64,000 nucleotides of DNA. Source: Gonocerus acuteangulatus. Taxonomy: Eukaryota > Arthropoda > Insecta > Hemiptera > Coreidae. The notes below the pieces were generated by a model, which saw only the letters and a list, made by a program, of their open reading frames with translations, ran no database searches and was not told where the DNA came from. How positions within the stretch are numbered: the stretch's first letter is position 1; each line of letters starts with the position of its first letter. Made by a program: the position numbers and the translations under genes. The stretch lies in the NCBI GenBank assembly GCA_946811695.1, contig OX328123.1, positions 14,036,162-14,100,161 of the forward strand. The letters are read 5' to 3'. Shown here piece after piece: positions 20,134-64,000 of this stretch.

Positions 20134-21259
20134 TAGTCGGAGAGCTGGTAAAACACTTTTCATAAAGTGTTTCATGCAGCTTGAAATTTTGCTATAATGT
20201 ACCTCTTGGGTAGATAAGAAGGTAAATATGTGTTGGCTGGACTCACCGTGGGACACCACGTACTGCGCATATGTGTTGGCTGGACTCACCGTGGGACACC
20301 ACGTACTGCGCATATGTGTTGGCTGGACTCACCGTGGGACACCACGTACTGCGCATATGTGTTGGCTGGACTCACCGTGGGACACCACGTACTGCGCATA
20401 TGTGTTGGCTGGACTCACCGTGGGACACCACGTTCTGCGCATATGTGTTGGCTGGACTCACCGTGGGACACCACGTACTGCGCATAAGGGAAACGTGTAA
20501 AAGAATATTTCCCAAGAATAGTGTTTTATTCAGAAGCCAACTATCATTAATGTAAAAAAAATTGCAAATTAAGGCAATTTCACAATGATTAATAAATAAA
20601 GTAGATAATTTTAAGAGGGTTAAAATGTAGTTAAAAAAACCAAAGTACCTAGTTTTAATTTTTAATATTAAATGAAGTTCTTTATTCACGCAGCGATTTA
20701 AACAGCGTCTTCAATAAACACAATTGAAAATAATTACAAAAGGGCAGACACTTTTGTGGGGTTTAATTATCAGGAAACATGAAAATAATTGTTGCCTTTG
20801 ATAGACTGCATGTAACCTCAATAAAAGTGTATAACAGGGCCGCGCAGTTGTGGTTATTCCCTGCACTCTCATTGACTCTTGCTCACATGATCTTTTACAG
20901 CTGCCCCGGTTAAAATGGCAGCGCGAATAAAACTCTCATTTAATATTAGAATAAAAACAACTTTTTTTTTCTTCTTCTTTTTTTTTTTTTGACATTTTAT
21001 CCCCCCTAAAAGAGTCTGCCTTATGTATTATTCATTGTAAAATAGTATTAATTTTACATTAAAGAGAGTTGGCTTCTGAATAAAACTCTATTCTTGGGAA
21101 ATATTTTTTTGCGCCATTCCCCTATGCGCAGTACCTGGTGTTCCACGGTAAGCCTAGCCAACACATATTTACCTACTTATTTACTCAAGAGATATATTTT
21201 AGCAAAATTTCAAGGTGCATAAAACACTTCATGAAGTGCGGTAACCGGCTCTTCGACTA
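20134..21259. mobile_element. TIR element (family TIR4) with 43-bp minisatellite
   Basis: Left end TAGTCGGAGAGCTGG; right end CCGGCTCTTCGACTA. The subterminal parts match the compact copy at 36883-37207: AAATTTTGCTATAATGTACC on the left and its complement on the right, CTAATTC-type loops, and the phrase GTTGGCTTCTGA. Inside lies a six-unit 43-bp array followed by about 550 bp of AT-rich sequence absent from the compact copy, perhaps a nested insertion. Confidence 0.6.
20228..20485. repeat. 43-bp minisatellite, six copies
   Basis: Unit contains ATGTGTTGGCTGGACTCACC and GTGGGACACCACGTACTGCG. Each unit has a stem CGTGG-GACA-CCACG. Copies differ by single bases (TACTGCG/TTCTGCG). Open frames through it are artefacts of a repeat without stops. 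Confidence 0.95.
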
Positions 21260-27361: not shown

Positions 27362-27379
27362 TGGTGACCCCGACGTGAT
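27362..27379 (+). promoter_or_regulatory. Primer binding site for tRNA-Trp
   Basis: TGGTGACCCCGACGTGAT is complementary to the 3' end of tRNA-Trp (CCA included). It begins two bases after the 5' LTR and overlaps the Gag start codon at 27378. Confidence 0.85.
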
Positions 27380-31325: not shown

Positions 31326-31333
31326 GGGGGAAG
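31326..31333 (+). promoter_or_regulatory. Polypurine tract
   Basis: GGGGGAAG, preceded by further G, sits immediately upstream of the 3' LTR, as expected for plus-strand priming. Confidence 0.75.
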
Positions 31334-31726
31334 TGATGTAGCACCACGAAAGTAAACTGACTGACAACACCGTAACCTGACTGTCAACAATGGGAAGGTT
31401 ACGCGTGGTTAGTCAGTGTTGCCGGTGCCACAATAATTTATGAATATTTAAATTTCTCACCGCGGCTTTGAGGTAACCCGAAAATTACCTAGCCAAATTT
31501 AAGTTTGGTGTGTATAAAAAGTGCGACAACGTGGTGCTGATTTTCTTTGTGACTTTTTTGGACTTTCTTTAAATTATCTGGCAGTGGACCGTTATTTATT
31601 ATTTAATTTATTATCAGAAGTTAATTATTATTATTTTTCAATTGCCAAGTGTTTTATTTTTTTTATTATATAGACATTTATTTTTTTAACCGGCTTATTT
31701 TATTTTTTACCTGATACTCCTCTAAA
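31334..31726 (+). repeat. 3' LTR
   Basis: 393 bp; differs from the 5' LTR at about six positions (three clustered at GTTACGCGTGG versus GTTACGTAGGG). Confidence 0.92.
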
Positions 31727-36860: not shown

Positions 36861-36882
36861 AATCCTACATAAGCATTACTGT

Positions 36883-37207
36883 TAGACCGAGAGCTGGCAA
36901 CGCACTTTTCATGATGCACCCTGAAATTTTGCTATAATGTACCTCTTAGGTAGATAAGAAGGTAAACATGTGTTTCCTGGACATACCTTGGAACACCAGG
37001 CATTGGTAAAGATAGTTGGCTTCTGATTAAAACTCTATTTTTCGGAAATATTTTTTTGCACCTTTCCCCTATACGCAGTACCTGGTGTTCCAAGGTATGT
37101 CCCGGAAACACATACACACCTTCTTATCTACCTAAGAGTTATATTATAGCAAAATTTCAAGGTGCATAAAACACTTCACTAAAAGTGCGTTGCCAGCTCT
37201 CGGACTA
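36883..37207. mobile_element. TIR4 element, compact copy
   Basis: Ends TAGACCGAGAGCTGGCAACG and CGTTGCCAGCTCTCGGACTA; arms of about 130 bp including TTTTGCTATAATGTACCTCT and GAACACCAGG. Whole copy 325 bp. Confidence 0.75.
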
Positions 37208-39519: not shown

Positions 39520-40140
39520 TAGATTTAGATTTTAGAGACAAGGTGCCCGGCTGACCGGGGAACCGCACCGAGGCCTATAAGACCTATTGTGCCACCTGAC
39601 GTGTCGTTCTGTTACAATGTTCAGCTCCGGTATCCTCCTTGGATCATCAATTATCGCCGTCCCAAAGTGCAAATACCTCTTGGCTGCCAGCGTCGTGCAT
39701 CTGCATACAATGTGGTATGGGGTCTCGTCGTCCTCAGAGCACAATCTGCACCATGTTGTATTAGAGAGTCCCATGGAGTAGAGGTGTCTCCGTAGTTTGC
39801 AGTGCCCTGTAATTAGGGCTGTCAGTAGTTTCACCTTGCTTCTACATAGCTTAAGCAGTGAATCCGTTCTTTTCTTATCCGCAAAGACCATAAATTGCTT
39901 CGCCTGTCTCTGGGTAGCACTTCTGCTCCATTTCCTCTTGTGTTCAGCTTCAGCCCACCTACGGATGCTCAATCTGGCAACAGCCGGTGCAATTCCACAT
40001 ATTGGTTCTGGTGAAAAAGGTGTCATGGATGCTCCTATATTAGCCAATTCATCAGCCTTCTCATTCCCAGGTATGCCAGAGTGCCCTGGTACCCACTCTA
40101 GTTTGACCCCGTTTTTCCTGCCTAGATATTCTACATATAT
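39520..40140 (-). pseudogene. R1/I-like non-LTR ORF2 fragment (RNase H end and C-terminus)
   Basis: Minus-strand frame open from the truncation near 40140 to the stop at about 39532. The first residues are the last motif of RNase H: WVPGHSGIPGNEKADELA, encoded at about 40050-40100. Next come LLTALITGHCKLRRHL and a zinc-knuckle-like CRLCSEDDETPYHIVCRC, the arrangement seen in insect R1/I-type ORF2 C-termini. The upstream RT and endonuclease are missing through 5' truncation. About 90 bp of GC-rich C-terminal tail leads to an AATCTAAATCTA-type 3' end. Confidence 0.8.
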
Positions 40141-40964
40141 ATGCTTATATATTTGTCTGAGAACTAACAGACATCTATATAGGTATGTATTTGTCTCCTC
40201 GCACGTTTTGGGCTAAGTTCGACCCTTTGCTATCAGTTAAATGAAAATATCTTAGCTTTTTAGGTTTCTACCAATTTCACCTTACTGTACTAATGGGACC
40301 CTATTTTACGATAAGTAAAAAAAATTAAAAGAGAACACCCACGTAGTAGGTAAAATCGAGGAAGATGTGAAGACATTTTTCAAAACTTCTTTCAAGAGTA
40401 AAACCTCAATAGCTACATTCCTACTATGTAAGTTAAGGACCGTGGGTGAAAAAAAGGTAGAAAAACTGCACTTTATATTTTGCCGGAGCACATTTGCCTA
40501 GGAGTTCCTGCATATCATTCGGGATGTCTTTGGCAGTCTGTCAGTATGTGTTTAATCGTAAGAAATTAGGGAATATATTTATATAGAAATCACCTTTAAA
40601 ATGGTTTAATCGTTTTAAAAATACTGGATCGAAATAAGTTGAACTAAAGAATTCACAATAATGGTTATAGTGAAATAAGTCATAAGAAGAACCTAAACGG
40701 GTAGTTATAAAAGTAATTATGCGGTGCTAATAGTGCCACGGGTGGAGTGCATTAAATGCAGTTTATAGCATGCAGATTTACGATAATGACTTGGCAACCA
40801 AACCATTTCCACACCATTTAGCTATAGAGATGAAAACCTCCTGTCAACGGCATATAAACTGGTAATTATATCGCATTTATAAATGACAATTTATTTATAA
40901 TTCGTATTTAAACAATTATCTATTCAGGAATAATATTGAAGATAAGGGAATACTTTATTCTTAA
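40141..40964. other. Spacer with HLN1-like tail fragment
   Basis: 40355-40435 (TCGAGGAAGATGTGAAGACA, AACCTCAATAGCTACATTCC) is a diverged piece of the HLN1 hairpin side. Rest AT-rich. Confidence 0.4.
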
Positions 40965-42751: not shown

Positions 42752-42915
42752 AAATCCAGCTCACTCTCTAAGGCTTTACTCGCTCCAGCTTGGAATAAAC
42801 TCCTAACGTTCCAGATTCCTATTCGCAGATTATTGCTTGGGTCCTTCCTTAGTCTTCGTCTATTTCTACTTTTGGAAGTGCTTATTCTGCTCTTATTCTT
42901 TTCCACTAGTGGCAT
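42752..42915 (-). pseudogene. RTE-like ORF, N-terminal endonuclease fragment
   Basis: The minus strand encodes a basic leader and LRIGIWNVRSLFQAGASKAL, the first motif of an APE-type endonuclease (the Asn of WNVRSL is a catalytic residue). It ends at the target duplication. Upstream on this strand, to about 43105, is G-rich 5' leader sequence. Confidence 0.7.
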
Positions 42916-43105
42916 TGGCTGGGCCCCCCCCCCCCCCCAGATGCGAATGGGCCCCTATGGGGACTTTTTTTAAAGAAACCTCTGCCATTTTATGGAGTTT
43001 GGTTGAAACTGCTATCTCGTTTCCTGGCTGTTTTTGACAGCTGGTACGCCACCCCCTTGCTAACCCTCCTCCTTTTTCAAACGGGCTTGGGACCGTCTTT
43101 GGCTG

Positions 43106-43854
43106 TCGCCGGGGCTCTGGAAGAATTCCTGCGTGCTGCAAGAGAACTTGGACTGGATGTAAATGTGGAGAAGACGGTCTATATGAAGTCAGCAACGTCA
43201 GAAGAAGCCCACGAAGAAGTTGTCGTCTTTGGAGAGTACTCTTTTGCAAGATCCAAAGAATTCAAATATCTAGGCAGCAAGCTGACAGAAAATAATGAAA
43301 TACCAGCTGATATAAAGGCGAGAATTGCTGCTGGAAACAGATATTTCTTTGGACTGCAGAGAGTACTCAAGTATAAAAGGTTGTCCAGAAATGCAAAGGC
43401 CCTTGTATATAGAAGTATCCTGAGGCCAACAGTCACCTATGGCAGTGAGGCATGGACCCTAACATCAGAGTCAATGCGTGTGCCGAGAGTGTGGGAGCTA
43501 AAGGTTCTGCGGCGGATTTATGGGCCTGTGAAGATCGGTGAGCAGTGGAGGATTAGGAGCAACCAAGAGCTGCGGGATCTTTATGCAGACCCGGACATAG
43601 TGGCAAACATTAAGACTGGGCGGCTGCGATGGCTTGGCCATGTTGAAAGGATGGGACCTACACGACTCCCCCGGAAACTCCTGTACGGCAAGCCTGGAGG
43701 AGGACGGAGGCGAGGGAAGCCCCGTCTTCGCTGGCTGGACGACGTCGAAAAAGACCTGACGGCTCTGGGGATCAGCCGTTGGAGGAGATTCGCTGCCGAC
43801 TGGGGAGAATGGAAGAAGCTGCTAGCAGAGGCCATGGTCCTTCATGGACTTTAG
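43106..43854 (+). pseudogene. RTE-like ORF, C-terminal part of reverse transcriptase
   Basis: Open frame from the inversion junction to TAG 43852. It starts just after where the YADD box would be: LRAARELGLDVNVEKTVYM. It then has FKYLGSKLTE, LVYRSILRPTVTYGSEAWTL, ELKVLRRIYGPVK, RLRWLGHVERM and LRWLDDVEKDL, the conserved order of RTE-clade C-termini. Codons upstream of 43106 in the same frame come from the inverted 5' leader and are not native. No internal stops; GC content well above the flanks. Confidence 0.85.
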
Positions 43855-43916: not shown

Positions 43917-44203
43917 CCGTTTTATTTGCTTGCTGAAATATTTGCTAATGCCAGAGCGTTTTATTTGCTTGCTGAAATATTTGCTAATGCCAGAGCGTTT
44001 TATTTGCTTGCTGAAATATTTGCTAATGCCAGAGCGTTTTATTTGCTTGCTGAAATATTTGCTAATGCCAGAGCGTTTTATTTGCTTGCTGAAATATTTG
44101 CTAATCCCAGATCGTTTTATTTGCTTGCTGAAATATTTGCTGATGCCAGAGCGTTTTATTTGCTTGCTGAAATATTTGCTAATGCCACAGCGTTTTATTT
44201 GTT
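43917..44203. repeat. 39-bp tandem repeat, about seven copies
   Basis: Unit contains GCGTTTTATTTGCTTGCTGA and AATATTTGCTAATGCCAGA. Period divisible by three, so all frames without stops stay open; these frames are artefacts. Confidence 0.95.
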
Positions 44204-44862: not shown

Positions 44863-45162
44863 ATGTATATGTATGACCCAATTATATTTGTGTGTAAAAC
44901 GAGGAGTAACCTTTTGCCATTCCGAAAGCTAACATGGACATGACCACTACTACTCTAAACGGCAAAAAGGAAAATAAAAATTGAGAAACATATGACAACG
45001 TTTTATAGGAAAGGAGTGGAGTTTTGTGGAGGAGCTTTGTTCAATTGCCTGCCTCAGGAATGAAGAAACATCCAGCCGACCAAAAGACTTATCCTGAAAC
45101 TGAAAAGAATACTCCGACAAAGAACGTGTTACACAACTGAAGAACTTTTTGAAATAGATTTG

Positions 45163-45650
45163 GCATCCAGACTGGCATCCTGACTGGCATCCAGACTGGC
45201 ATCCAGACTGGCATCCTGACTGGCATCCAGACTGGCATCCAGACTGACATCCTGACTGGCATCCAGACTGGCATCCAGACTGGCATCCTGACTGGCATCC
45301 AGACTGGCATCCTGACTGGCATCCAGACTGGCATCCTGACTGGCATCCTGACTGGCATCCTGACTGGCATCCTGACTGGCATCCAGACTGGCATCCAGAC
45401 TGGCATCCTGACTGGCATCCAGACTGGCATCCTGACTGGCATCCTGACTGGCATCCAGACTGGCATCCAGACTGGCATCCTGACTGGCATCCAGACTGGC
45501 ATCTAGACTTCATCCTGACTGGCATCCAGACTGGCATCCTGACTGGCGTCCTGACTGGCATCCTGACTGGCATCCTGACTGGCATCCAGACTGGCATCCA
45601 GACTGGCATCCTGACTGGCATCCAGACTGGCATCCAGACTGGCATCCTGA
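45163..45650. repeat. 12-bp minisatellite, about 40 units
   Basis: Unit CTGGCATCC(A/T)GA. The A and T versions alternate irregularly. A few units carry other changes (GACATCC, GGCGTCC, and a unit with CTTCATCC). Long stop-free frames through it are artefacts of the 12-bp period. Confidence 0.97.
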
Positions 45651-46910
45651 CTAAAATCTGCATATATAGTATTATTTATTTATTTATTTATTCATTATGA
45701 GCTAAGCAACTTTAGCGATAAGCTCATGATCTGAAAAATCTCTGTCTAGTCAAGAAAAAAAGAGAAAAAAAAATAAAAACAAAAAATAAAACGAAGACAA
45801 GAACAATTTGATAATAATTTGAGTGACTTTTCACTGATGTGGGCAAATATTCGCGCATACATATGGGTTATAATGTATGCCTATATATCATATCCATACA
45901 ATACTCATACATAATTTTTAATATGTTCATACATCAAAAATGAAATCAAGTGAAAAAAAAAGTAAAATATAAAACTAAGTGGTCACATTAAAAGATAAGA
46001 ACATGGCTAATATATAAACAAGTAATAAAAATGATTCTGTTGTCTCTGATTAAATTTAAAAAAAATAATAATACAAAAAAAAAAAAAAAAGAGAGAGAAA
46101 GGAGGAAATCAAAAAGAAGAAAAAATATTATATATAGCTACATCGAAGAAAAGTAAATGTAGTATTAAATGTATTATAATATTATTATATGTCGTGTCCA
46201 TATCTCGAAAACGAGTTTTTGGAAATAAAAATTATTCTATTCTAACAACCTCGTCCTGGGATTGTGCGTGACCTTCTTTCAGTAAACAAGGTTTTACTCA
46301 CGTTTCAATTAGCAAATCAAAATGACCAGTAAATGACTTACAATATTACACAAAATTCCTATTTATTTATTTATACATTAGTGAGACCTCGACAAGGGCA
46401 ATTCATCACTTAAAACACAATCCATATTAAATTGAATGGAATGTGGAATTGTTCACGAAATATCATATAAGTGATATAAAAAACAATATATTTGTTCTGT
46501 AAAATAACTACTAGAAAGCCCTGATATGTATAACTATACTAGGTAGGTATATAAAAACATAGAATTAATTATTTTTTTTGAAAATCTATAATAAGGGCTT
46601 TTGTCCTTGAAAAGTTTATAACGTAGGTAATTAAAAGAAACAGTGTGCTCCCTAATTTGAAAATAAATTACAACGTCATTTTCAGAGGGATACAGATCCA
46701 TACTACAGATCACGAAATGAAGGAAAATTAAAAATCACGGATAATGGGAAGAAAAACTAATTGCTCACGAATTGATTAAAAGCCGGTATCCAATAAAGCT
46801 TTCGTTTTCTGTGAAAAAAAGGCAATATTTAAGGGAGAGGAAATTTAAACAGACAGGTGAAACAAGGGCTGTCATTGACGGGGGAATATCCTGGAAATAT
46901 GACCACGAAC
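45651..46910. other. AT-rich stretch
   Basis: (ATTT)n at about 45669-45692 and an A run near 46073-46090. No gene recognised up to the candidate exon. Confidence 0.45.
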
Positions 46911-49009: not shown

Positions 49010-49038
49010 GTTATAACCTTAGTTCGAGGTGATAAAAA
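48132..49038. other. AT-rich spacer with two (TA)n tracts
   Basis: (TA)n at about 48778-48834 and 48942-49003. No gene. Confidence 0.5.
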
Positions 49039-49351
49039 GTCAGAGAATAGCTGGGATTCGGCTAGGAAAACATCAATACGATTTTTGTAAAAATCTGTAT
49101 TAAGGAAGTTTTGGCGACTCTATGGTGGCCTTTTTCAGCAAAGAGTGCCGGGGGGGGGTAGAGAAAAACCTAAGTTAAGTGACCATGGTGAAAAGTTAAG
49201 CAGTTAAGTGACCATGGTGAAAAGTTAAGCAGTTAAGTGACCATGGTGAAAAGTTGAGTGACCATGGTTACTATATTTTCACCAAGGTCACTTAACTGCT
49301 AACTTTGGTATTTCTCTACCCCCTTGAATTTATACTGACGAAGGCTACCAA
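49039..49351 (+). mobile_element. PAL2-type foldback, interrupted on its right side
   Basis: Left arm GCTGGGATTCGGCTAGGAAA and TTTTGTAAAAATCTGTATTA; the other arm begins TGACGAAGGCTACCA and is cut by the poly(A) end of the next retrotransposon. A 29-bp triplication (TTAAGTGACCATGGTGAAAA, 49172-49260) sits in the loop. The rest of the arm is not found after 62 kb. Confidence 0.6.
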
Positions 49352-49469
49352 TTTTTTTTTTTTTTTTTTTTTTCATTTCTATTTAAATTTTTGATTTTAA
49401 TTATTTTATTCTAAATTTTACTTATTCATTTATTTTTCCATTACATACGCATCTTCCATTATTATATAT

Positions 49470-49675
49470 TTTGGTATGAACCAGAATCTAGAAATTCTAG
49501 TATTTAATGTATTATTTTATTTTCGTAACCCAATGCAATGCTGATATTTGCAGGGATTTTCATTTTTTCTAATTCTTTCCAGTTTGTGAGGTGTCATCAC
49601 AACTTGGATATTTTTGTGGGTCTTCTTTCGACAAGAGGAATCCATTTGACAATTGTGTGTGTCCTATTCTCATTC
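49470..49675 (-). pseudogene. Non-LTR ORF2 C-terminal fragment beyond the satellite
   Basis: Element-sense residues ARMRIGHTQLSNGFLLSKED continue in frame from the last satellite unit. A cysteine pair PSCDD follows, then one frameshift, then WKELEKMKIPANISIAL and GYENKIIH with a stop before ILEFLDSG. RIGHT-(R/Q)L-...-(Y/F)LL is a hallmark of the segment after RNase H in many insect non-LTR elements. Not functional. Confidence 0.75.
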
Positions 49676-52600
49676 GAGCTACGACTACCTCCTCTATTCT
49701 GCTAGCTCTCGATGAAGAGCCCTAGTATTGTATTGAGGGTTTTATCTCCCTTAATTTATTGTCCATAACTTCCTGCCACATTCTAGCTACGACTACCTCC
49801 TCTATCCTGCTAGCTCTCGATGAAGAACCCTAGTATTGTATTGACTACCTCCTCTATCCTGCTAGCTCTCGATGAAGAGCCCTAGTATTGTATTGACTAC
49901 CTCCTCTATCCTGCTAGCTCTCGATGAAGAGCCCTAGTATTGTATTGACTACCTCCTCTATCCTGCTAGCTCTCGATGAGGAACCCTAGCATTGTATTGA
50001 CTACCTCCTCTATCCTGCTAGCTCTCGATGAAGAGCCCTAGTATTGTATTGAGGGTTTTATCTCCCTTAATTTATTCTCCATAACTTCCTGCCACATTCG
50101 AGCTACGACTACCTCCTCTATCCTGCTAGCTCTCGATGAAGAACCCTAGCATTGTATTGACTACCTCCTCTATCCTGCTAGCTCTCGATGAAGAGCCCTA
50201 GTATTGTATTGAGGGTTTTATCTCCCTTAATTTATTGTCTATAACTTCCTGCCACATTCGAGCTACGACTACCTCCTCTATCCTGCTAGCTCTCGATGAA
50301 GAACCCTAGCATTGTATTGAGGGTTTTATCTCCCTTAATTTATTGTCCATAACTTCCTGCCACATTCGAGCTACGACTACCTCCTCTATCCTGCTAGCTC
50401 TCGATGAAGAACCCTAGCATTGTATTGACTACCTCCTCTATCCTGCTAGCTCTCGATGAAGAACCCTAGCATTGTATTGACTACCTCCTCTATCCTGCTA
50501 GCTCTCGATGAAGAACCCTAGCATTGTATTGACTACCTCCTCTATCCTGCTAGCTCTCGATGAAGAACCCTAGCATTGTATTGAGGGTTTTATCTCCCTT
50601 AATTTATTGTCCATAACTTCCTGCCACATTCGAGCTACGACTACCTCCTCTATCCTGCTAGCTCTCGATGAAGAACCCTAGCATTGTATTGACTACATCC
50701 TCTATCCTGCTAGCTCTCGATGAAAAACCCGAGCATTGTATTGAGGGTTTTATCTCCCTTAATTTATTGTCCATAACTTCCTGCCACATTCGAGCTACGA
50801 CTACCTCCTCTATCCTGCTAGCTCTCGATGAAGAACCCTAGCATTGTATTGAGGGTTTTATCTCCCTTAATTTATTGTCCATAACTTCCTGCCACATTCG
50901 AGCTACGACTACCTCCTCTATCCTGCTAGCTCTCGATGAAGAACCCTAGCATTGTATTGACTACCTCCTCTATCCTGCTAGCTCTCGATGAAGAGCCCTA
51001 GTATTGTATTGAGGGTTTTATCTCCCTTAATTTATTCTCCATAATTTCCTGCCACATTCGAGCTACGACTACCTCCTCTATCCTGCTAGCTCTCGATGAA
51101 GAACCCTAGCATTGTATTGACTACCTCCTCTATCCTGCTAGCTCTCGATGAAGAGCCCTAGTATTGTATTGAGGGTTTTATCTCCCTTAATTTATTGTCT
51201 ATAACTTCCTGCCACATTCGAGCTACGACTACCTCCTCTATCCTGCTAGCTCTCGATGAAGAACCCTAGCATTGTATTGAGGGTTTTATCTCCCTTAATT
51301 TATTCTCCATAACTTCCTGCCACATTCGAGCTACGACTACCTCCTCTATCCTGCTAGCTCTCGATGAAGAACCCTAGCATTGTATTGACTACCTCCTCTA
51401 TCCTGCTAGCTCTCGATGAAGAACCCTAGCATTGTATTGACTACCTCCTCTATCCTGCTAGCTCTCGATGAAGAACCCTAGCATTGTATTGACTACCTCC
51501 TCTATCCTGCTAGCTCTCGATGAAGAACCCTAGCATTGTATTGACTACCTCCTCTATCCTGCTAGCTCTCGATGAAGAACCCTAGCATTGTATTGACTAC
51601 CTCCTCTATCCTGCTAGCTCTCGATGAAGAACCCTAGCATTGTATTGAGGGTTTTATCTCCCTTAATTTATTGTCCATAACTTCCTGCCACATTCGAGCT
51701 ACGACTACCTCCTCTATCCTGCTAGCTCTCGATGAAGAACCCTAGCATTGTATTGACTACATCCTCTATCCTGCTAGCTCTCGATGAAGAACCCGAGCAT
51801 TGTATTGAGGGTTTTATCTCCCATAATTTATTGTCCATAACTTCCTGCCACATTCGAGCTACGACTACCTCCTCTATCCTCCTAGCTCTCGATGAAGAAC
51901 CCTAGCATTGTATTGAGGGTTTTATCTCCCTTAATTTATTGTCCATAACTTCCTGCCACATTCGAGCTACGACTACCTCCTCTATCCTGCTAGCTCTCGA
52001 TGAAGAACCCGAGCATTGTATTGAGGGTTTTATCTCCCTTAATTTATTGTCCATAACTTCCTGCCACATTCGAGCTACGACTACCTCCTCTATCCTGCTA
52101 GCTCTCGATGAAGAACCCTAGCATTGTATTGAGGGTTTTATCTCCCTTAATTTATTGTCCATAACTTCCTGCTACATTCGAGCTACGACTACCTCCTCTA
52201 TCCTGCTAGCTCTCGATGAAGAACCCTAGCATTGTATTGAGGGTTTTATCTCCCTTAATTTATTGTCCATAACTTCCTGCCACATTCGAGCTACGACTAC
52301 CTCCTCTATCCTGCTAGCTCTCGATGAAGAACCCTAGCATTGTATTGACTACCTCCTCTATCCTGCTAGCTCTCGATGAAGAACCCTAGCATTGTATTGA
52401 CTACCTCCTCTATCCTGCTAGCTCTCGATGAAGAACCCTAGCATTGTATTGACTACCTCCTCTATCCTGCTAGCTCTCGATGAAGAACCCTAGCATTGTA
52501 TTGAGGGTTTTATCTCCCTTAATTTATTGTCCATAACTTCCTGCCACATTCGAGCTACGACTACCTCCTCTATCCTGCTAGCTCTCGATGAAGAACCCTA

Positions 52601-55600
52601 GCATTGTATTGACTACCTCCTCTATCCTGCTAGCTCTCGATGAAGAACCCTAGCATTGTATTGAGGGTTTTATCTCCCTTAATTTATTGTCCATAACTTC
52701 CTGCCACATTCGAGCTACGACTACCTCCTCTATCCTGCTAGCTCTCGATGAAGAACCCTAGCATTGTATTGACTACCTCCTCTATCCTGCTAGCTCTCGA
52801 TGAAGAACCCTAGCATTCTATTGACTACCTCCTCTATCCTGCTAGCTCTCGATGAAGAACCCTAGCATTGTATTGAGGGTTTTATCTCCCTTAATTTATT
52901 GTCCATAACTTCCTGCCACATTCGAGCTACGACTACCTCCTCTATCCTGCTAGCTCTCGATGAAGCACCCTAGCATTGTATTGACTACCTCCTCTATCCT
53001 ACTAGCTCTCGATGAAGAACCCTAGCATTGTATTGACTACTTCATCTATCCTGCTAGCTCTCGATGAAGAACCCTAGCATTGTATTGACTACCTCCTCTA
53101 TCCTGCTAGCTCTCGATGAAGAACCCTAGCATTGTATTGAGGGTTTTATCTCCCTTAATTTATTGTCCATAACTTCCTGCCACATTCGAGCTACGACTAC
53201 CTCCTCTATCCTGCTAGCTCTCGATGAAGCACCCTAGCATTGTATTGACTACCTCCTCTATCCTGCTAGCTCTCGATGAAGAACCCTAGCATTGTATTGA
53301 GGGTTTTATCTCCCTTAATTTATTGTCCATAACTTCCTGCCACATTCGAGCTACGACTACCTCCTGTATCCTGCTAGCTCTCGATGAAGAACCCTAGCAT
53401 TGTATTGAGGGTTTTATCTCCCTTAATTTATTGTCCATAACTTCCTGCCACATTCGAGCTACGACTACCTCCTCTATCCTGCTAGCTCTCGATGAAGAAC
53501 CCCAGCATTGTATTGAGGGTTTTATCTCCCTTAATTTATTGTCCATAACTTCCTGCCACATTCGAGCTACGACTACCTCCTTTATCCTGGTAGCTCTCGA
53601 TGAAGAACCCTAGCATTGTATTGAGGGTTTTATCTCCCTTAATTTATTGTCCATAACGTCCTGCCACATTCGAGCTACGACTACCTCCTCTATCCTGCTA
53701 GCTCTCGATGAAGAACCCTAGCATTGTATTGAGGGTTTTATCTCCCTTAATTTATTGTCCATAACTTCCTGCCACATTCGAGCTACGACTACCTCCTCTA
53801 TCCTGCTAGCTCTCGATGAAGAACCCGAGCATTGTATTGAGGGTTTTATCTCCCTTAATTTATTGTCCATAACTTCCTGCCACATTCGAGCTACGACTAC
53901 CTCCTCTATCCTGCTAGCTCTCGATGAAGAACCCTACTATTGTATTGAGGGTTTTATCTCCCTTAATTTATTGTCCATAACTTCCTGCCACATTCGAGCT
54001 ACGACTACCTCCTCTATCCTGCTAGCTCTCGATGAAGAACCCTAGCATTGTATTGAGGGTTTTATCTCCCTTAATTTATTGTCCATAACTTCCTGCCACA
54101 TTCGAGCTACGACTACCTCCTCTATCCTGTTAGCTCTCGATGAAGAACCCTAGCATTGTATTGACTACCTCCTCTATCCTGCTAGCTCTCGATGAAGAAC
54201 CCTAGCATTGTATTGACTACCTCCTCTATCCTGCTAGCTCTCGATGAAGAACCCTAGCATTGTATTGAGGGTTTTATCTCCCTTAATTTATTGTCCATAA
54301 CTTCCTGCCACATTCGAGCTACGACTACCTCCTCTATCCTGCTAGCTCTCGATGAAGAACCCTAGCATTGTATTGACTACCTCCTCTATCCTGCTAGCTC
54401 TCGATGAAGAACCCTAGCATTGTATTGAGGGTTTTATCTCCCTTAATTTATTGTCCATAACTTCCTGCCACATTCGAGCTACGACTACCTCCTCTATCCT
54501 GCTAGCTCTCGATGAAGCACCCTAGCATTGTATTGACTACCTCCTCTATCCTACTAGCTCTCGATGAAGAACCCTAGCAGTGTATTGACTACCTCCTCTA
54601 TCCTGCTAGCTCTCGATGAAGAACCCTAGCATTTTATTGACTACCTCCTCTATCCTGCTAGCTCTCGATGAAGAACCCTAGCATTGTATTGAGGGTTTTA
54701 TCTCCCTTAATTTATTGTCCATAACTTCCTGCCACATTCGAGCTACGACTACCTCCTCTATCCTGCTAGCTCTCGATGAAGCACCCTAGCATTGTATTGA
54801 CTACCTCCTCTATCCTGCTAGCTCTCGATGAAGAACCCTAGCATTGTATTGAGGGTTTTATCTCCCTTAATTTATTCTCCATAACTTCCTGCCACATTCG
54901 AGCTACGACTACCTCCTGTATCCTGCTAGCTCTCGATGAAGAACCCTAGCATTGTATTGAGGGTTTTATCTCCCTTAATTTATTGTCCATAACTTCCTGC
55001 CACATTCGAGCTACGACTACCTCCTCTATCCTGCTAGCTCTCGATTTAGAACCCCAGCATTGTATTGAGGGTTTTATCTCCCTTAATTTATTGTCCATAA
55101 CTTCCTGCCACATTCGAGCTACGACTACCTCCTTTATCCTGCTAGCTCTCGATGAAGAACCCTAGCATTGTATTGAGGGTTTTATCTCCCTTAATTTATT
55201 GTCCATAACTTCCTGCCACATTCGAGCTACGACTACCTCCTATATCCTGCTAGCTCTCGATGAAGAACCCTAGCATTGTATTGAGGGTTTTATCTCCCTT
55301 AATTTATTGTCCATAACTTCCTGCCACATTCGAGCTACGACTACCTCCTCTATCCTGCTAGCTCTCGATGAAGAACCCCAGCATTGTATTGAGGGTTTTA
55401 TCTCCCTTAATTTATTGTCCATAACTTCCTGCCACATTCGAGCTACGACTACCTCCTCTATCCTGCTAGCTCTCGATGAAGAACCCTAGCATTGTATTGA
55501 CTACCTCCTCTATCCTGCTAGCTCTCGATGAAGAACCCTAGCATTGTATTGAGGGTTTTATCTCCCTTAATTTATTGTCCATAACTTCCTGCCACATTCG

Positions 55601-58600
55601 AGCTACGACTACCTCCTCTATCCTGCTAGCTCTCGATGAAGATCCCTAGCATTGTATTGAGGGTTTTATCTCCCTTAATTTATTGTCCATAACTTCCTGC
55701 CACATTTGAGCTACGACTACCTCCTCTATCCTGCTAGCTCTCGATGAAGAACCCCAGCATTGTATTGAGGGTTTTATCTCCCTTAGTTTATTGTCCATAA
55801 CTTCCTGCCACATTCGAGCTACGACTACCTCCTCTATCCTGCTAGCTCTCGATGAAGAACCCTAGCATTGTATTGACTACCTCCTCTATCCTGCTAGCTC
55901 TCGATGAAGAACCCTAGCATTGTATTGAGGGTTTTATCTCCCTTAATTTATTGTCCATAACTTCTTGCCACATTCTAGCTACGACTACCTCCTCTATCCT
56001 GCTAGCTCTCGATGAAGTACCCTAGCATTGTATTGAGGGTTTTATCTCCCTTAATTTATTGTCCATAACTTCTTGCCACATTCTAGCTACGACTACCTCC
56101 TCTATCCTGCTAGCTCTCGATGAAGCACCCTAGCATTGTATTGACTACCTCCTCTATCCTGCTAGCTCTCGATGAAGAACCCTAGCATTGTATTGAGGGT
56201 TTTATCTCCCTTAATTTATTGTCCATAACTTCCTGCCACATTCGAGCTACGACTACCTCCTCTATCCTGCTAGCTCTCGATGAAGAACCCTAGCATTGTA
56301 TTGAGGGTTTTATCTCCCTTAATTTATTGTCCATAACTTCCTGCCACATTCGAGCTACGACTACCTCCTCTATCCTGCTAGCTCTCGATGAAGAACCCCA
56401 GCATTGTATTGAGGGTTTTATCTCCCTTAATTTATTGTCCATAACTTCCTGCCACATTCGAGCTACGACTACCTCCTTTATCCTGCTAGCTCTCGATGAA
56501 GAACCCTAGCATTGTATTGACTACCTCCTCTATCCTGCTAGCTCTCGATGAAGAACCCTAGCATTGTATTGACTACCTCCTCTATCCTGCTAGCTCTCGA
56601 TGAAGAACCCTAGCATTGTATTGACTACCTCCTCTATCCTGCTAGCTCTCGATGAAGAACCCTAGCATTGTATTGAGGGTTTTATCTCCCTTAATTTATT
56701 GTCCATAACTTCCTGCCACATTCGAGCTACGACTACCTCCTCTATCCTGCTAGCTCTCGATGAAGAACCCTAGCATTGTATTGACTACCTCCTCTATCCT
56801 GCTAGCTCTCGATGAAGAACCCTAGCATTCTATTGACTACCTCCTCTATCCTGCTAGCTCTCGATGAAGAACCCTAGCATTGTATTGAGGGTTTTATCTC
56901 CCTTAATTTATTGTCCATAACTTCCTGCCACATTCGAGCTACGACTACCTCCTCTATCCTGCTAGCTCTCGATGAAGCACCCTAGCATTGTATTGACTAC
57001 CTCCTCTATCCTACTAGCTCTCGATGAAGAACCCTAGCATTGTATTGACTACCTCATCTATCCTGCTAGCTCTCGATGAAGAACCCTAGCATTGTATTGA
57101 CTACCTCCTCTATCCTGCTAGCTCTCGATGAAGAACCCTAGCATTGTATTGAGGGTTTTATCTCCCTTAATTTATTGTCCATAACTTCCTGCCACATTCG
57201 AGCTACGACTACCTCCTCTATCCTGCTAGCTCTCGATGAAGCACCCTAGCATTGTATTGACTACCTCCTCTATCCTGCTAGCTCTCGATGAAGAACCCTA
57301 GCATTGTATTGAGGGTTTTATCTCCCTTAATTTATTGTCCATAACTTCCTGCCACATTCGAGCTACGACTACCTCCTGTATCCTGCTAGCTCTCGATGAA
57401 GAACCCTAGCATTGTATTGAGGGTTTTATCTCCCTTAATTTATTGTCCATAACTTCCTGCCACATTCGAGCTACGACTACCTCCTCTATCCTGCTAGCTC
57501 TCGATGAAGAACCCCAGCATTGTATTGAGGGTTTTATCTCCCTTAATTTATTGTCCATAACTTCCTGCCACATTCGAGCTACGACTACCTCCTCTATCCT
57601 GTTAGCTCTCGATGAAGAACCCTAGCATTGTATTGACTACCTCCTCTATCCTGCTAGCTCTCGATGAAGAACCCTAGCATTGTATTGACTACCTCCTCTA
57701 TCCTGCTAGCTCTCGATGAAGAACCCTAGCATTGTATTGAGGGTTTTATCTCCCTTAATTTATTGTCCATAAGTTCCTGCCACATTCGAGCTACGACTAC
57801 CTCCTCTATCCTGCTAGCTCTCGATGAAGAACCCTAGCATTGTATTGACTACCTCCTCTATCCTGCTAGCTCTCGATGAAGAATCCTAGCATTGTATTGA
57901 GGGTTTTATCTCCCTTAATTTATTGTCCATAACTTCCTGCCACATTCGAGCTACGACTACCTCCTCTATCCTGCTAGCTCTCGATGAAGCACCCTAGCAT
58001 TGTATTGACTACCTCCTCTATCCTACTAGCTCTCGATGAAGAACCCTAGCATTGTATTGACTACCTCCTCTATCCTGCTAGCTCTCGATGAAGAACCCTA
58101 GCATTTTATTGACTACCTCCTCTATCCTGCTAGCTCTCGATGAAGAACCCTAGCATTGTATTGAGGGTTTTATCTCCCTTAATTTATTGTCCATAACTTC
58201 CTGCCACATTCGAGCTACGACTACCTCCTCTATCCTGCTAGCTCTCGATGAAGCACCCTAGCATTGTATTGACTACCTCCTCTATCCTGCTAGCTCTCGA
58301 TGAAGAACCCTAGCATTGTATTGAGGGTTTTATCTCCCTTAATTTATTCTCCATAACTTCCTGCCACATTCGAGCTACGACTACCTCCTGTATCCTGCTA
58401 GCTCTCGATGAAGAACCCTAGCATTGTATTGAGGGTTTTATCTCCCTTAATTTATTGTCCATAACTTCCTGCCACATTCGAGCTACGACTACCTCCTCTA
58501 TCCTGCTAGCTCTCGATGAAGAACCCTAGCATTGTATTGACTACCTCCTCTATCCTGCTAGCTCTCGATTTAGAACCCCAGCATTGTATTGAGGGTTTTA

Positions 58601-61600
58601 TCTCCCTTAATTTATTGTCCATAACTTCCTGCCACATTCGAGCTACGACTACCTCCTTTATCCTGCTAGCTCTCGATGAAGAACCCTAGCATTGTATTGA
58701 GGGTTTTATCTCCCTTAATTTATTGTCCATAACTTCCTGCCACATTCGAGCTACGACTACCTCCTATATCCTGCTAGCTCTCGATGAAGAACCCTAGCAT
58801 TGTATTGAGGGTTTTATCTCCCTTAATTTATTGTCCATAACTTCCTGCCACATTCGAGCTACGACTACCTCCTCTATCCTGCTAGCTCTCGATGAAGAAC
58901 CCCAGCATTGTATTGAGGGTTTTATCTCCCTTAATTTATTGTCCATAACTTCCTGCCACATTCGAGCTACGACTACCTCCTCTATCCTGCTAGCTCTCGA
59001 TGAAGAACCCTAGCATTGTATTGACTACCTCCTCTATCCTGCTAGCTCTCGATGAAGAACCCTAGCATTGTATTGAGGGTTTTATCTCCCTTAATTTATT
59101 GTCCATAACTTCCTGCCACATTCGAGCTACGACTACCTCCTCTATCCTGCTAGCTCTCGATGAAGATCCCTAGCATTGTATTGAGGGTTTTATCTCCCTT
59201 AATTTATTGTCCATAACTTCCTGCCACATTTGAGCTACGACTACCTCCTCTATCCTGCTAGCTCTCGATGAAGAACCCCAGCATTGTATTGAGGGTTTTA
59301 TCTCCCTTAGTTTATTGTCCATAACTTCCTGCCACATTCGAGCTACGACTACCTCCTCTATCCTGCTAGCTCTCGATGAAGAACCCTAGCATTGTATTGA
59401 CTACCTCCTCTATCCTGCTAGCTCTCGATGAAGAACCCTAGCATTGTATTGAGGGTTTTATCTCCCTTAATTTATTGTCCATAACTTCTTGCCACATTCT
59501 AGCTACGACTACCTCCTCTATCCTGCTAGCTCTCGATGAAGTACCCTAGCATTGTATTGAGGGTTTTATCTCCCTTAATTTATTGTCCATAACTTCTTGC
59601 CACATTCTAGCTACGACTACCTCCTCTATCCTGCTAGCTCTCGATGAAGCACCCTAGCATTGTATTGACTACCTCCTCTATCCTGCTAGCTCTCGATGAA
59701 GAACCCTAGCATTGTATTGAGGGTTTTATCTCCCTTAATTTATTGTCCATAACTTCCTGCCACATTCGAGCTACGACTACCTCCTCTATCCTGCTAGCTC
59801 TCGATGAAGAACCCTAGCATTGTATTGAGGGTTTTATCTCCCTTAATTTATTGTCCATAACTTCCTGCCACATTCGAGCTACGACTACCTCCTCTATCCT
59901 GCTAGCTCTCGATGAAGAACCCCAGCATTGTATTGAGGGTTTTATCTCCCTTAATTTATTGTCCATAACTTCCTGCCACATTCGAGCTACGACTACCTCC
60001 TTTATCCTGCTAGCTCTCGATGAAGAACCCTAGCATTGTATTGACTACCTCCTCTATCCTGCTAGCTCTCGATGAAGAACCCTAGCATTGTATTGAGGGT
60101 TTTATCTCCCTTAATTTATTGTCCATAACTTCCTGCCACATTCGAGCTACGACTACCTCCTCTATCCTGCTAGCTCTCGATGAAGATCCCTAGCATTGTA
60201 TTGAGGGTTTTATCTCCCTTAATTTATTGTCCATAACTTCCTGCCACATTTGAGCTACGACTACCTCCTCTATCCTGCTAGCTCTCGATGAAGAACCCCA
60301 GCATTGTATTGAGGGTTTTATCTCCCTTAGTTTATTGTCCATAACTTCCTGCCACATTCGAGCTACGACTACCTCCTCTATCCTGCTAGCTCTCGATGAA
60401 GAACCCTAGCATTGTATTGACTACCTCCTCTATCCTGCTAGCTCTCGATGAAGAACCCTAGCATTGTATTGAGGGTTTTATCTCCCTTAATTTATTGTCC
60501 ATAACTTCTTGCCACATTCTAGCTACGACTACCTCCTCTATCCTGCTAGCTCTCGATGAAGTACCCTAGCATTGTATTGAGGGTTTTATCTCCCTTAATT
60601 TATTGTCCATAACTTCTTGCCACATTCTAGCTACGACTACCTCCTCTATCCTGCTAGCTCTCGATGAAGCACCCTAGCATTGTATTGACTACCTCCTCTA
60701 TCCTGCTAGCTCTCGATGAAGAACCCTAGCATTGTATTGAGGGTTTTATCTCCCTTAATTTATTGTCCATAACTTCCTGCCACATTCGAGCTACGACTAC
60801 CTCCTCTATCCTGCTAGCTCTCGATGAAGAACCCTAGCATTGTATTGAGGGTTTTATCTCCCTTAATTTATTGTCCATAACTTCCTGCCACATTCGAGCT
60901 ACGACTACCTCCTCTATCCTGCTAGCTCTCGATGAAGAACCCCAGCATTGTATTGAGGGTTTTATCTCCCTTAATTTATTGTCCATAACTTCCTGCCACA
61001 TTCGAGCTACGACTACCTCCTTTATCCTGCTAGCTCTCGATGAAGAACCCTAGCATTGTATTGAGGGTTTTATCTCCCTTAATTTATTGTCCATAACTTC
61101 CTGCCACATTCGAGCTACGACTACCTCCTCTATCCTGCTAGCTCTCGATGAAGAACCCTAGCATTGTATTGAGGGTTTTATCTCCCTTAATTTATTGTCC
61201 ATAACTTCCTGCCACATTCGAGCTACGACTACCTCCTCTATCCTGCTAGCTCTCGATGAAGAACCCCAGCATTGTATTGAGGGTTTTATCTCCCTTAATT
61301 TATTGTCCATAACTTCCTGCCACATTCGAGCTACGACTACCTCCTCTATCCTGCTAGCTCTCGATGAAGAACCCTAGCATTGTATTGACTACCTCCTCTA
61401 TCCTGCTAGCTCTCGATGAAGAACCCTAGCATTGTATTGAGGGTTTTATCTCCCTTAATTTATTGTCCATAACTTCCTGCCACATTCGAGCTACGACTAC
61501 CTCCTCTATCCTGCTAGCTCTCGATGAAGAACCCTAGCATTGTATTGACTACCTCCTCTATCCTGCTAGCTCTCGATGAAGAACCCTAGCATTGTATTGA

Positions 61601-61862
61601 GGGTTTTATCTCCCTTAATTTATTGTCCATAACTTCCTGCCACATTCGAGCTACGACTACCTCCTCTATCCTGCTAGCTCTCGATGAAGAGCCCTAGCAT
61701 TGTATTGAGGGTTTTATCTCCCTTAATTTATTGTCCATAACTTCCTGCCACATTCGAGCTACGACTGCCTCCTCTATCCTGCTAGCTCTCGATGAAGAAC
61801 CCTAGCATTGTATCGAGGGTTTTATCTCCCTTAATTTATTCTCCATAACTTCCTGCCACATT
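49671..61862 (-). repeat. 12.2-kb satellite made from a non-LTR ORF2 segment
   Basis: Two unit types share a 52-bp core (from GACTACCTCCTCTATCCTGC to CCCTAGCATTGTATT). The long unit is 108 bp and adds a 56-bp block (starting GAGGGTTTTATCTCCCTTAA); the short unit is the core alone. On the minus strand the long unit is 36 codons: MWQEVMDNKLREIKPSIQ at the start and SSSRASRIEEVVVAR at the end. Most units have a TAG between them; some have TGG (Trp). Similarity among units is very high. Higher-order periods of about 960, 1020 and 3524 bp are visible. Plus-strand open frames of 60-96 codons occur only where adjacent units lack the stop and are not genes. Confidence 0.97.
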
Positions 61863-61950
61863 TCTGACCAATTTTATCTTATTTCGTTTTTTATCGGGTT
61901 GAAGACTTCGTTTGCATTTTATGGTGTGGGCGTGATTTCGGTTAGCGTAA

Positions 61951-62655
61951 TATGGCGTAATTTCGGTTAGGGTGTAATTCCATGGTATGTTGGAGGTAAC
62001 TATTCGAAAGCTTACTAAATCTCATATAGAAATGGTTCTCAACTCATTTTTCATCGAACAATCAAAGAGGAACCTTAAAACTATGAAATTATTTGTTTCG
62101 TTCATTCCAACGGTTGTTTTTGTCTGTTCTCCTCATTTTGTTATTGCTTCTTCATTGTTTCAAATTACTATTAGCTGTACAAAGAATTTCTCAGTAAAAA
62201 AAAATTTTTTAAAATGACATAAGAACAGAAGCGTTATGAGCCTCCTCATAAAGGAGGAGGCTCCTTTTCATTTCGAAATCCCTAAACCACCGCAGGTATA
62301 AGAAAATGTTTCATAAGCTCTTCCTATAATCTTTCCAAAAACTTCTTACAAAGTTTCTAAATCCTTCTTAATATTTAATCTTTCTTTATTAATATTTAAG
62401 AATTAATGTTTGAATCCTAAAATTTATATTTTAATCCATCTGAGAACTTTTAAGAAAGTAAAGCTGTAAGATCATTGTAACAATCAACAAAAAAAAATCA
62501 ACTTCCAGAATATTGGTTTCTAAGGCGTAAGGTTTTCTGGGACAACGCACAATTATTGACCATACAATAACTTATGAAAGCAATGGTGACAGGCTGTCTG
62601 CGAGAAATATCCCAGCCTCTTTCGGGGGATGGGTTGCGAAGGCCGGGTGCTGGAA
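61951..62655. other. AT-rich spacer with a perfect hairpin
   Basis: A tandem phrase (GTAATTTCGGTTAG-like) near 61935-61975 adjoins the retrotransposon remnant. A 10-bp perfect stem GAGCCTCCTC / GAGGAGGCTC with a 6-base loop lies at 62238-62263, followed by CTTTTC. No gene supported; the 76-codon frame at 61987 has no motif. Confidence 0.45.
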
Positions 62656-63250
62656 TTTTATCTTCGACAATTTATATTCTGGTAATTGTTATCTTCGCTT
62701 TGAATTTATATTCTGGATATTGTTATCTTCGCTTTGAATTTATATTCTGGATATTGTTATCTTCGCTTTGAATTTATATTCTGGATATTGTTATCTTCGC
62801 TTTGAATTTATATTCTGGATATTGTTATCTTCGCTTTGAATTTATATTCTGGAAATTGTTATCTTCGCTTTGAATTTATATTCTGGATATTGTTATCTTC
62901 GCTTTGAATTTATATTCTGGTAATTGTTATCTTCGCTTTGAATTTATATTCTGGATATTGTTATCTTCGCTTTGAATTTATATTCTGGATATTGTTATCT
63001 TCGCTTTGAATTTATATTCTGGTAATTGTTATCTTCGCTTTTAATTTATATTCTGGTAATTGTTATCTTCGCTTTGAATTTATATTCTGGATATTGTTAT
63101 CTTCGCTTTGAATTTATATTCTGGATATTGTTATCTTCGCTTTGAATTTATATTCTGGATATTGTTATCTTCGCTTTGAATTTATATTCTGGATATTGTT
63201 ATCTTCGCTTTGAATTTATATTCTGGATATTGTTATCTTCGCTTTGAATC
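62656..63250. repeat. 34-bp minisatellite, about 17 copies
   Basis: Unit contains GAATTTATATTCTGGATATT and GTTATCTTCGCTTT. Variants at one site: GGATATT, GGTAATT, GGAAATT. Confidence 0.95.
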
Positions 63251-64000
63251 TGTGAATGACAACGGTTCCTACCGAGGCGTAGAATTATTTTCTCACCATC
63301 TCATATTTGTTTTCGCTACGTAACACAGTCACTCAAAAAAGAAAAGTGGTATTTTCCAAAGTCACCGTACATATATTCTTATGAATTTCGACTAGCTGAA
63401 TCAGAATCCGCAGCTCTTTTCATTCCAGAACGTCACCTTTAAGGGCATTTGAACGTCAAATTTCGTATGAAGTTGTTAAAGAAGAAATAACTAGAGTTTC
63501 CATGGTTTCGAGGGTAGCTGAATTCGAATCAGAGGTCTGTTTCAGCATATCGTCGCAAAATCAAGGCCATTTCAGGAAAGATATGTCTTTTTGCAAAAAT
63601 GAATTTGCAGTCAAAAATTCATTTTTGTTGTTTTGTGTATCACTGTTATTACTAACAAGTTAAGTTAATATCAAGTTAATGATTGTAATTAATCATAAAT
63701 CTAGGCCTAATTACGTACATTCTCTAGTCATTAGTCAAACTCTGTATTTTTAATCATTAATTATTAATCGTATGCAAGATTAGTTAGTCGTTAGTCATTA
63801 ATCATGGAGAATAAGGATTAATCAATCATGAATTGTTAGTGACATTCCGAATACTTATTTAATTATTAGTCATTAGAAGGGAACAGATATTATTTTATTT
63901 ACATATTTTTTTTCTTATTCTTAAATTGTAACTGTTGTTGCAGTTCTGAACGTTTTAAGTGATTTTAAAGCATTTAAACAGTTTTTTTTTTTTTTTTCAC
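63251..64000. other. Spacer
   Basis: From about 63640 a diffuse TTAGTCATTAATCAT-type low-order repetition; before that, text with AGCTGAATTCGAATCAGA of a kind common in insect repeats. No gene. Confidence 0.4.

What the first reader, a model, noticed from the sequence alone, without database searches (positions are those of the whole stretch)
49671..61862. A 12-kb satellite born inside the coding region of a non-LTR retrotransposon
Read on the minus strand, the 108-bp unit is exactly 36 codons of the ORF2 segment between RNase H and the RIGHT...LL block (MWQEVMDNKLREIKPSI ... SSSRASRIEEVVVAR). The sequence on each side of the array continues the same protein: NEVFNPIKNEIR*NWSE before it and RIGHTQLSNGFLL after it, in the same frame as the unit. 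The array is therefore not an independent satellite that was invaded. It grew within one integrated element copy. Satellites from LTRs, SINEs and TE internal repeats are known; an array from an ORF2 coding segment, with the parent copy still flanking it, captures the origin directly.
Basis: partly seen in the sequence, partly recalled or inferred. Interest (0 to 1): 0.9.

Follow-up and report, generated by a model that had tools for sequence, protein, structure and literature searches.

The report
Satellite array inside dead retrotransposon copy
A 12-kb block of tandem repeats in what is probably an arthropod genome grew out of a 108-base piece of a dead jumping gene's protein-coding region, a clear and well-preserved case of an already known way in which satellite DNA is born.

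Summary
The array (49671-61862) is built of 145 A modules (52 bp) and 83 B modules (56 bp); AB = 108 bp = 36 codons of a non-LTR ORF2. Corrections: 128 of 145 A modules carry an in-frame TAG; 62 A-A junctions break the frame; the 3' flank is strong, but the 5' flank is about 20 weakly supported codons (anchored P 0.008-0.02; 0 hits alone). The copy ends in poly(A) and is a 3'-terminal fragment. The unit is bounded by a 4-bp CATT repeat, and exact 1.0-1.6 kb blocks show recent exchange. A second array here (43 bp x 6) also grew inside a dispersed repeat with single-copy paralogs. LINE ORF2-related satellites and single-locus TE-born arrays are in print. New member of a known kind; no genome-wide test was possible.

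The parts
49019..49351 (.). Foldback-type dispersed repeat into which, or next to which, the LINE copy was inserted; its homology to a paralog at 18659-18921 stops where the poly(T) begins
   Evidence: blastn inside the window; the paralog continues with AGAGTAGCC..., and no such match to the right flank was found
49352..49373 (-). 22-nt poly(A) (poly(T) on +): 3' end of the LINE copy
   Evidence: sequence; boundary supported by the end of foldback homology at 49351
49465..49536 (-). Possible frame-shifted C-terminus of ORF2 (ALGYENKIIH*ILEFLDSGSYQNI), followed by AATAAA motifs (49434, 49410) and the poly(A)
   Evidence: 21 relatives align at E<=10, best E=0.21; 25 of 200 shuffles score as high, so it is not significant on its own
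49575..49673 (-). 3' (C-terminal) flank of the array: MRIGHTQLSNGFLLSKEDPQKYPSCDDTSQTGK
   Evidence: 114 of 120 relatives hit with this piece alone at E<=10, best E=2.4e-10 (P0112); coordinates
49671..49674 (.). CATT, left copy of the 4-bp direct repeat bounding the 108-bp unit
49683..61862 (-). Tandem array, 145 A (52 bp) + 83 B (56 bp, the last cut short); AB = 36 ORF2 codons MWQEVMDNKLREIKPSIQC*GSSSRASRIEEVVVAR
   Evidence: unit alone hits 106 of 120 relatives at E<=10, best E=3.5e-9
55015..56572 (.). 1,558-bp block inside the array, 100% identical to 58539-60096 (recent large-block exchange); a 1,062-bp block likewise occurs at 55459, 58983 and 60003
61859..61862 (.). CATT, right copy of the bounding direct repeat
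61862..61927 (-). 5' (N-terminal) flank: TP*NANEVFNPIKNEIR*NWSE, probable ORF2 linker upstream of the unit
   Evidence: tblastn matches of 25 of 120 relatives cross the edge, 16 of them to 61891 or beyond, the farthest to 61966; none lies wholly right of 61862 and the flank alone gives 0 matches at E<=0.1; anchored score beats 99.2% of 102,080 null positions ungapped and 98% of 17,010 with one gap, but lies far below genuine relatives
61999..62199 (+). Unrelated dispersed repeat right of the LINE remnant (matches near 11048, 47692 and 35872)
20226..20486 (+). Comparator: 43-bp x 6 array inside another dispersed repeat; related places in the same window hold the unit once (20909-21259) or once in each of two inverted arms (36868-37208)

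Best explanation
A non-LTR retrotransposon with an RNase H-type ORF2 (jockey/X-element-like by the names of some relatives) left a short 3'-terminal copy here, read on the minus strand and ending in poly(A). Inside this copy, 108 bp lying between two CATT (AATG on -) sites were duplicated in tandem, most likely by replication slippage or microhomology-mediated repair. In the young array one 56-bp B half was lost (or one A half was duplicated) between two GA dinucleotides, giving a lone 52-bp A module. Unequal exchange and larger block duplications then spread AB and A into 12.2 kb. Shown: homology of unit and 3' flank, two-module structure, bounding microhomologies, exact kilobase blocks, more diverged left-edge units, lack of coding capacity. 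Inferred: order of events, the repair process, birth at this very locus, the 5' flank. It most likely has no function as a protein; it is a young minisatellite/proto-satellite.
For: Continuous 73-residue ungapped alignment of flank-unit-flank to P0121 (48% identity, E=1.3e-12 against 5.77 billion sequences, PF00075 RNase H) and to P0058 (45%). Unit alone: 106 of 120 relatives; 3' flank alone: 114 of 120 (both E<=10). The unit aligns with P0058 residues 112-147, downstream of its RNase H-type motif. Poly(A) at 49352-49373, where the homology of the paralogous target repeat breaks off. 4-bp CATT shared at the unit's two outer breakpoints, 2-bp GA at the A/B breakpoints. The 62 A-A junctions share one breakpoint, point changes aside. 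Exact 1,558-bp and 1,062-bp repeats in the array. Edge tiles more diverged than inner ones (permutation P 0.011-0.019, carried mainly by the left edge). No copy of the unit elsewhere in the window at E<=0.01. Same mode at the 43-mer: 3-bp microhomology, single-copy paralogs.
Against: The 5' flank scores far below real relatives (-9 bits against 18 or more in the 47 profile sequences), carries stops and gives no match alone at E<=0.1; no RNase H sequence follows. The C-terminal piece beyond the frameshift is not significant alone (25 of 200 shuffles as good). No clear target-site duplication. The expected other half of the foldback target is not found right of the array. Whether the same satellite lies elsewhere in the genome is untested (genome search not answered in 11 calls). 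A 4-bp microhomology may be chance, and PMC3389668 says that the postulated initiation mechanisms explain only 6% of its TE-derived repeats.
Confidence: 0.87

Rival explanations
1. The satellite was born in another copy of this LINE family (or is a genome-wide family) and reached this locus by retrotransposition of an array-bearing element, by eccDNA reinsertion or by segmental duplication. The ORF2 origin stands, but this copy is not the parent.
For: TE-carried arrays are known (reviews PMC6947457, section 9; PMC12628747, passages); the genome was not searchable here.
Against: The array continues in frame into collinear ORF2 sequence on the 3' side and probably on the 5' side; no unit elsewhere in the 64 kb; the left-edge units are the most diverged, as expected at a birthplace. 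None of this excludes it.
Confidence: 0.2
2. The LINE copy is 5'-truncated at the array's right edge: the sequence from about 61866 on is target DNA (direct repeat ACCAA next to the poly(T) and at 61867), so the array abuts target DNA on that side.
For: ACCAA lies directly left of the poly(T) and again at 61867; the right flank alone has no ORF2 match at E<=0.1.
Against: A random 5-mer recurs in that stretch 14% of the time; the flank has W and I/K at conserved ORF2 positions (anchored P 0.008-0.02), and 25 of 120 relatives have matches crossing the edge; the sequence following the target site in the foldback paralog is not found there.
Confidence: 0.2
3. An independent satellite into which a LINE inserted, or an array caught between two LINE insertions.
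For: None found beyond the mixing of repeats at the locus.
Against: The unit itself is ORF2 sequence, collinear and in frame with the 3' flank.
Confidence: 0.02
4. The array length or block structure is an assembly artefact (false expansion).
For: Exact repeats of 1.0-1.6 kb in the array are hard to assemble.
Against: 29 A and 13 B variants in the array; the modules and edges would stand even if the length is wrong.
Confidence: 0.06
5. The repeat is selected as a coding repeat (36-residue protein repeat).
For: 108 bp is a multiple of 3; 17 of 75 phased AB units are open.
Against: TAG in 128 of 145 A modules, 62 frame-breaking A-A junctions, longest minus-strand open run 71 aa.
Confidence: 0.01

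Closest known systems
LINE ORF2-related satellites: PROsat (Phodopus roborovskii, L1 ORF2), Pvc 20 (Phoca vitulina concolor, L1 ORF2), chicken HinfI/SCR1 (CR1 3' UTR + part of ORF2), as tabulated in PMC9659126 (passages)
   Same: Tandem satellite with a coding segment of non-LTR ORF2 in its unit
   Different: For PROsat the review says that only a small region is L1 ORF2-like; here the whole 108-bp unit is ORF2, from a jockey-like segment between RNase H and the RIGHT motif, with the element's 3' flank and poly(A) still attached. The passages seen do not say whether those families keep a flanking parent copy
Single-locus TE-derived tandem repeats of the human genome (Ahmed & Liang 2012, PMC3389668; passages)
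   Same: Arrays initiated and expanded in TE copies at one locus; at least 7,276 (23%) of human mini-/satellites are TE-derived, 5,747 clusters single-locus
   Different: Here 12 kb and 228 modules with a two-module block structure, another host and another LINE clade; array lengths in that paper were not compared
Minisatellites born from dispersed repeats (Alu, B1, MaLR Ms6-hm), with the Haber & Louis flanking-direct-repeat model, as reviewed in PMC6947457 (section 9; table passage)
   Same: Unit bounded by a short direct repeat in the parent, then amplified by slippage or unequal exchange
   Different: 4-bp (CATT) instead of the 5-10 bp of the model; LINE coding segment instead of SINE/LTR
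SINE-derived satellites of squamate reptiles (PMC10702118; passages)
   Same: Tandem duplications within a retroposon grew into satellite-like arrays
   Different: SINE, many loci in some genomes; here LINE ORF2, one locus seen

Membership tests
TE-derived (LINE ORF2) satellite/minisatellite | Tandem head-to-tail array of a homogeneous unit | tested here: met
   228 modules, 1.3% mean divergence
TE-derived (LINE ORF2) satellite/minisatellite | Unit homologous to a TE coding segment | tested here: met
   106 of 120 relatives for the unit at E<=10; P0121 E=1.3e-12 for flank-unit-flank
TE-derived (LINE ORF2) satellite/minisatellite | Unit present once in the parent element family | tested here: inconclusive
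   of 121 relatives 107 hold the RIGHT motif once, 2 twice (P0001, P0002), 12 do not match the pattern; these are distant relatives, the host's own family was not seen
TE-derived (LINE ORF2) satellite/minisatellite | Parent element flanks on both sides of the array | tested here: inconclusive
   3' flank met; 5' flank weak
Minisatellite born at flanking short direct repeats (Haber & Louis model, via PMC6947457) | 5-10 bp direct repeat flanking the unit in the parent | tested here: not met
   only 4 bp (CATT); works like the model, below its stated length
RNase H-bearing non-LTR retrotransposon (jockey/X-element-like) | ORF2 with RT and RNase H in this copy | tested here: not met
   no match of 120 relatives lies wholly right of the array (E<=1e-3 on the window, E<=0.1 on 61863-64000); RNase H present only in relatives. 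The copy is a 3'-terminal fragment
RNase H-bearing non-LTR retrotransposon (jockey/X-element-like) | Poly(A) or A-rich 3' end | tested here: met
   22 A on the minus strand at 49352-49373
RNase H-bearing non-LTR retrotransposon (jockey/X-element-like) | Target-site duplication | tested here: inconclusive
   only ACCAA at 61867, 14% by chance
RNase H-bearing non-LTR retrotransposon (jockey/X-element-like) | Place in the jockey/X-element clade on a tree | not tested
   Only names given by sources
Genome-wide satellite family | Arrays at many loci | not testable with these tools
   The genome search did not complete in 11 calls; none elsewhere in the window

The most novel reading that the evidence does not exclude
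The linker between RNase H and the RIGHT motif of jockey-like ORF2 is a recurrent hot spot of tandem duplication: this array and the near-identical internal duplication in relative P0001 would be two stages (2 copies; more than 200 modules) of one recurring route from coding LINE sequence to satellite, here caught at its birthplace with the order of events still readable.
Probability: 0.1. Interest if true: 0.55.

Novelty: new member of a known kind. Interest (0 to 1): 0.33.

Why it matters
How the first duplication of a satellite arises is hard to see because the parent sequence is usually lost. Here one parent flank (firmly) and perhaps both remain, the unit's outer breakpoints can be read to the base (4-bp microhomology), a second breakpoint (2 bp) explains the lone A module, and exact kilobase blocks show later growth. 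That makes the locus a good test case for slippage or microhomology repair against unequal exchange, and the 43-bp array nearby is a second case with single-copy paralogs in the same 64 kb. It does not change the known picture: TE copies often seed tandem repeats.

Tried and rejected
Independent satellite invaded by a LINE: rejected, because the unit itself is ORF2. Coding repeat: rejected. Long target-site duplication: none found; one search looked only from 61872 rightwards, at 61863-61999. Empty-site test from the foldback paralog: its continuation after the insertion point was not found right of the array, so no empty site could be shown. Copies of the unit in viral contigs (one 33-mer) and prokaryotic genome contigs (one 36-mer): 0 matches, not informative for a eukaryote. 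Pfam on the joined 88-aa piece: 0 families. First protein search with the 88-aa piece: no candidate. First tile parse timed out. One search counted one spurious B tile at the left edge, dropped; one search also dropped the last, cut B tile. In one search, 87 of 120 relatives fitted the anchor pattern and 47 remained after removal of near-identical ones; the profile used 104 of 120. In one search, of 83 A-B pairs one of 110 bp and 7 without the phase anchor were left out (75 counted). Literature: ten searches; no title about a jockey-clade ORF2 array was seen among the rows listed, which is not proof of absence.

Full report
WHAT IS THERE. The array runs from 49671 to 61862. A parse by dynamic programming covers it with two modules, A (52 bp) and B (56 bp), with no unassigned base between 49683 and the right edge. 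There are 145 A and 83 B modules (the 84th B is a spurious fit in the left flank). Grouped up to each B, the 83 tiles are AB x46, AAB x24, AAAAB x7, AAAB x4, AAAAAB x1 and AAAAAAB x1. B never follows B, and there are 62 A-A junctions, all 62 with the same breakpoint apart from point changes. 73 of 145 A and 58 of 83 B are identical to the commonest form. Exact blocks of 1,558 bp (55015 and 58539) and 1,062 bp (55459, 58983, 60003) recur. The outermost modules differ more from consensus than the inner ones (permutation P 0.011 to 0.019), mostly at the left edge. No unit lies elsewhere in the window at E<=0.01.

IS IT ORF2? On the minus strand AB reads MWQEVMDNKLREIKPSIQC*GSSSRASRIEEVVVAR. The 88-residue flank-unit-flank translation, stops as X, found no candidate as a bare piece. 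With an X-padded query that let longer proteins in, it found one protein with E<=0.01 among 25 candidates: P0121, 312 aa, E=1.3e-12, 48% identity over 73 residues without a gap, carrying a precomputed RNase H domain. All 120 listed hit the joined piece at E<=1, best P0058 with 45% over 73 residues. Piece by piece, at E<=10: unit alone 106 of 120, 3' flank alone 114 of 120, 5' flank alone 5 or 7 weak hits (best E 0.45 and 0.24), C-terminal piece 21 weak hits. The E-values are for a preselected set of 120.

THE FLANKS. 3' side: MRIGHTQLSNGFLLSKEDPQKYPSCDDTSQTGK (49673 down to 49575) is firm. Then the frame is lost; a stretch in another frame (49536-49465) resembles the ORF2 C-terminus but is not significant alone (25 of 200 shuffles as good). 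AATAAA motifs (49434, 49410) and a 22-nt poly(A) (49373-49352) follow. Directly beyond lies a foldback-type repeat whose paralog at 18659-18921 runs on past this point, so 49351/49352 looks like an insertion boundary. 5' side: the 22 residues next to the unit (61862-61927) score better than 99.2% of 102,080 other six-frame positions, or 98% of 17,010 with one gap allowed, but far below any of the 47 profile sequences. tblastn matches of 25 of 120 relatives cross this edge, 16 of them to 61891 or beyond, the farthest to 61966; none lies wholly to the right, and the right flank on its own gives 0 matches at E<=0.1. From about 61999 another dispersed repeat begins. No RNase H or RT match adjoins. 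A possible short target-site duplication (ACCAA at 61867) would put the element's end at the array edge; a random 5-mer recurs there 14% of the time. The copy is thus a short 3'-terminal LINE fragment, not a full parent.

HOW IT AROSE. The two outer edges share CATT (49671-49674, 61859-61862), and the starts of A and B share GA. The simplest course is a 108-bp duplication at CATT, loss of one B (or gain of one A) at GA, then spread by unequal exchange in units of AB and A and in kilobase blocks. The order and the enzymes are inference. 128 of 145 A modules carry TAG at the codon that is W in relatives such as P0121 and P0058; 13 have TGG and 4 TCG. With the 62 frame breaks, the array is no protein repeat.

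A SECOND CASE IN THE WINDOW. The 43-bp x 6 array at 20226-20486 lies inside a dispersed repeat. A related place at 20909-21259 carries the unit once (88% identity), and one at 36868-37208 carries it once in each of two inverted arms (80%, and a partial 81% match of 31 bp); the array's edges share 3 bp. Growth of arrays inside single repeat copies is therefore not unique to the finding even here.

WHAT IS KNOWN. The review PMC9659126 (passages) tabulates satellites related to L1 ORF2 (PROsat, of which a small region is ORF2-like; Pvc 20) and CR1 ORF2 (chicken HinfI). PMC3389668 (passages with the abstract) counts at least 7,276 TE-derived human tandem repeats, 23% of mini-/satellites, with 5,747 clusters at a single locus, and says that postulated initiation mechanisms explain only 6% of them. 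PMC6947457 (section 9; passages) describes the Haber & Louis model of short flanking direct repeats. PMC12628747 (passages) names untranslated regions of LINEs, not coding ones, as satellite sources, and mentions microhomology-initiated end joining. PMC10702118 (passages) describes SINE-born satellites. The finding is therefore a new, well-preserved member of a known kind.

LIMITS. The host is unknown; 'arthropod' is a guess from the named relatives. The clade name jockey/X-element rests on names given by sources, not on a tree.

Noticed in passing
window 20226-20486: 43-bp x 6 array (99%) inside a dispersed repeat; related places hold the unit once (20909-21259) or once in each of two inverted arms (36868-37208): a second array born inside a repeat copy, with 3-bp microhomology at its edges.
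   Followed up: yes
window 43918-44201: 39-bp x 7 array starting about 60 bp after the stop of an open frame (42910-43854) with a weak RT match (RVT_1, below cut-off), perhaps in the 3' UTR of another LINE-like element.
   Followed up: no
window 49019-49351 and 18659-18921: Foldback-type repeat; the copy next to the LINE also carries a 29-bp x 3 array at 49173-49255.
   Followed up: partly
window 27360-31336: Open frames of an LTR-type retroelement: 29015-31336 has RT, RNase H and integrase domains, 28148-29014 a protease match below cut-off; 27360-28016 was not tested. 'Ty3-like' would be recalled, not tested.
   Followed up: no
window 23530-24177, minus strand: ORF with a GIY-YIG domain just above cut-off, perhaps a Penelope-like element (recalled association).
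   Followed up: no
window 39532-40212, minus; 21703-21894, plus: Two further ORF2-like fragments: RNase H plus a zf-RVT match below cut-off, and a stretch matching the RIGHT-motif region of relative P0092.
   Followed up: no
relative P0001, residues 28 and 165: A relative's protein with the RIGHT region twice in near-identical copies, about 137 residues apart: an early tandem duplication of the same ORF2 part. P0002 also has two, but they are diverged and may be a fused gene model.
   Followed up: partly
window 62669-63249, 5299-5658, 45161-45652: Further young tandem arrays (34 bp x 17, 60 bp x 6 at 100%, 12 bp x 41): the region is rich in recent tandem growth.
   Followed up: no
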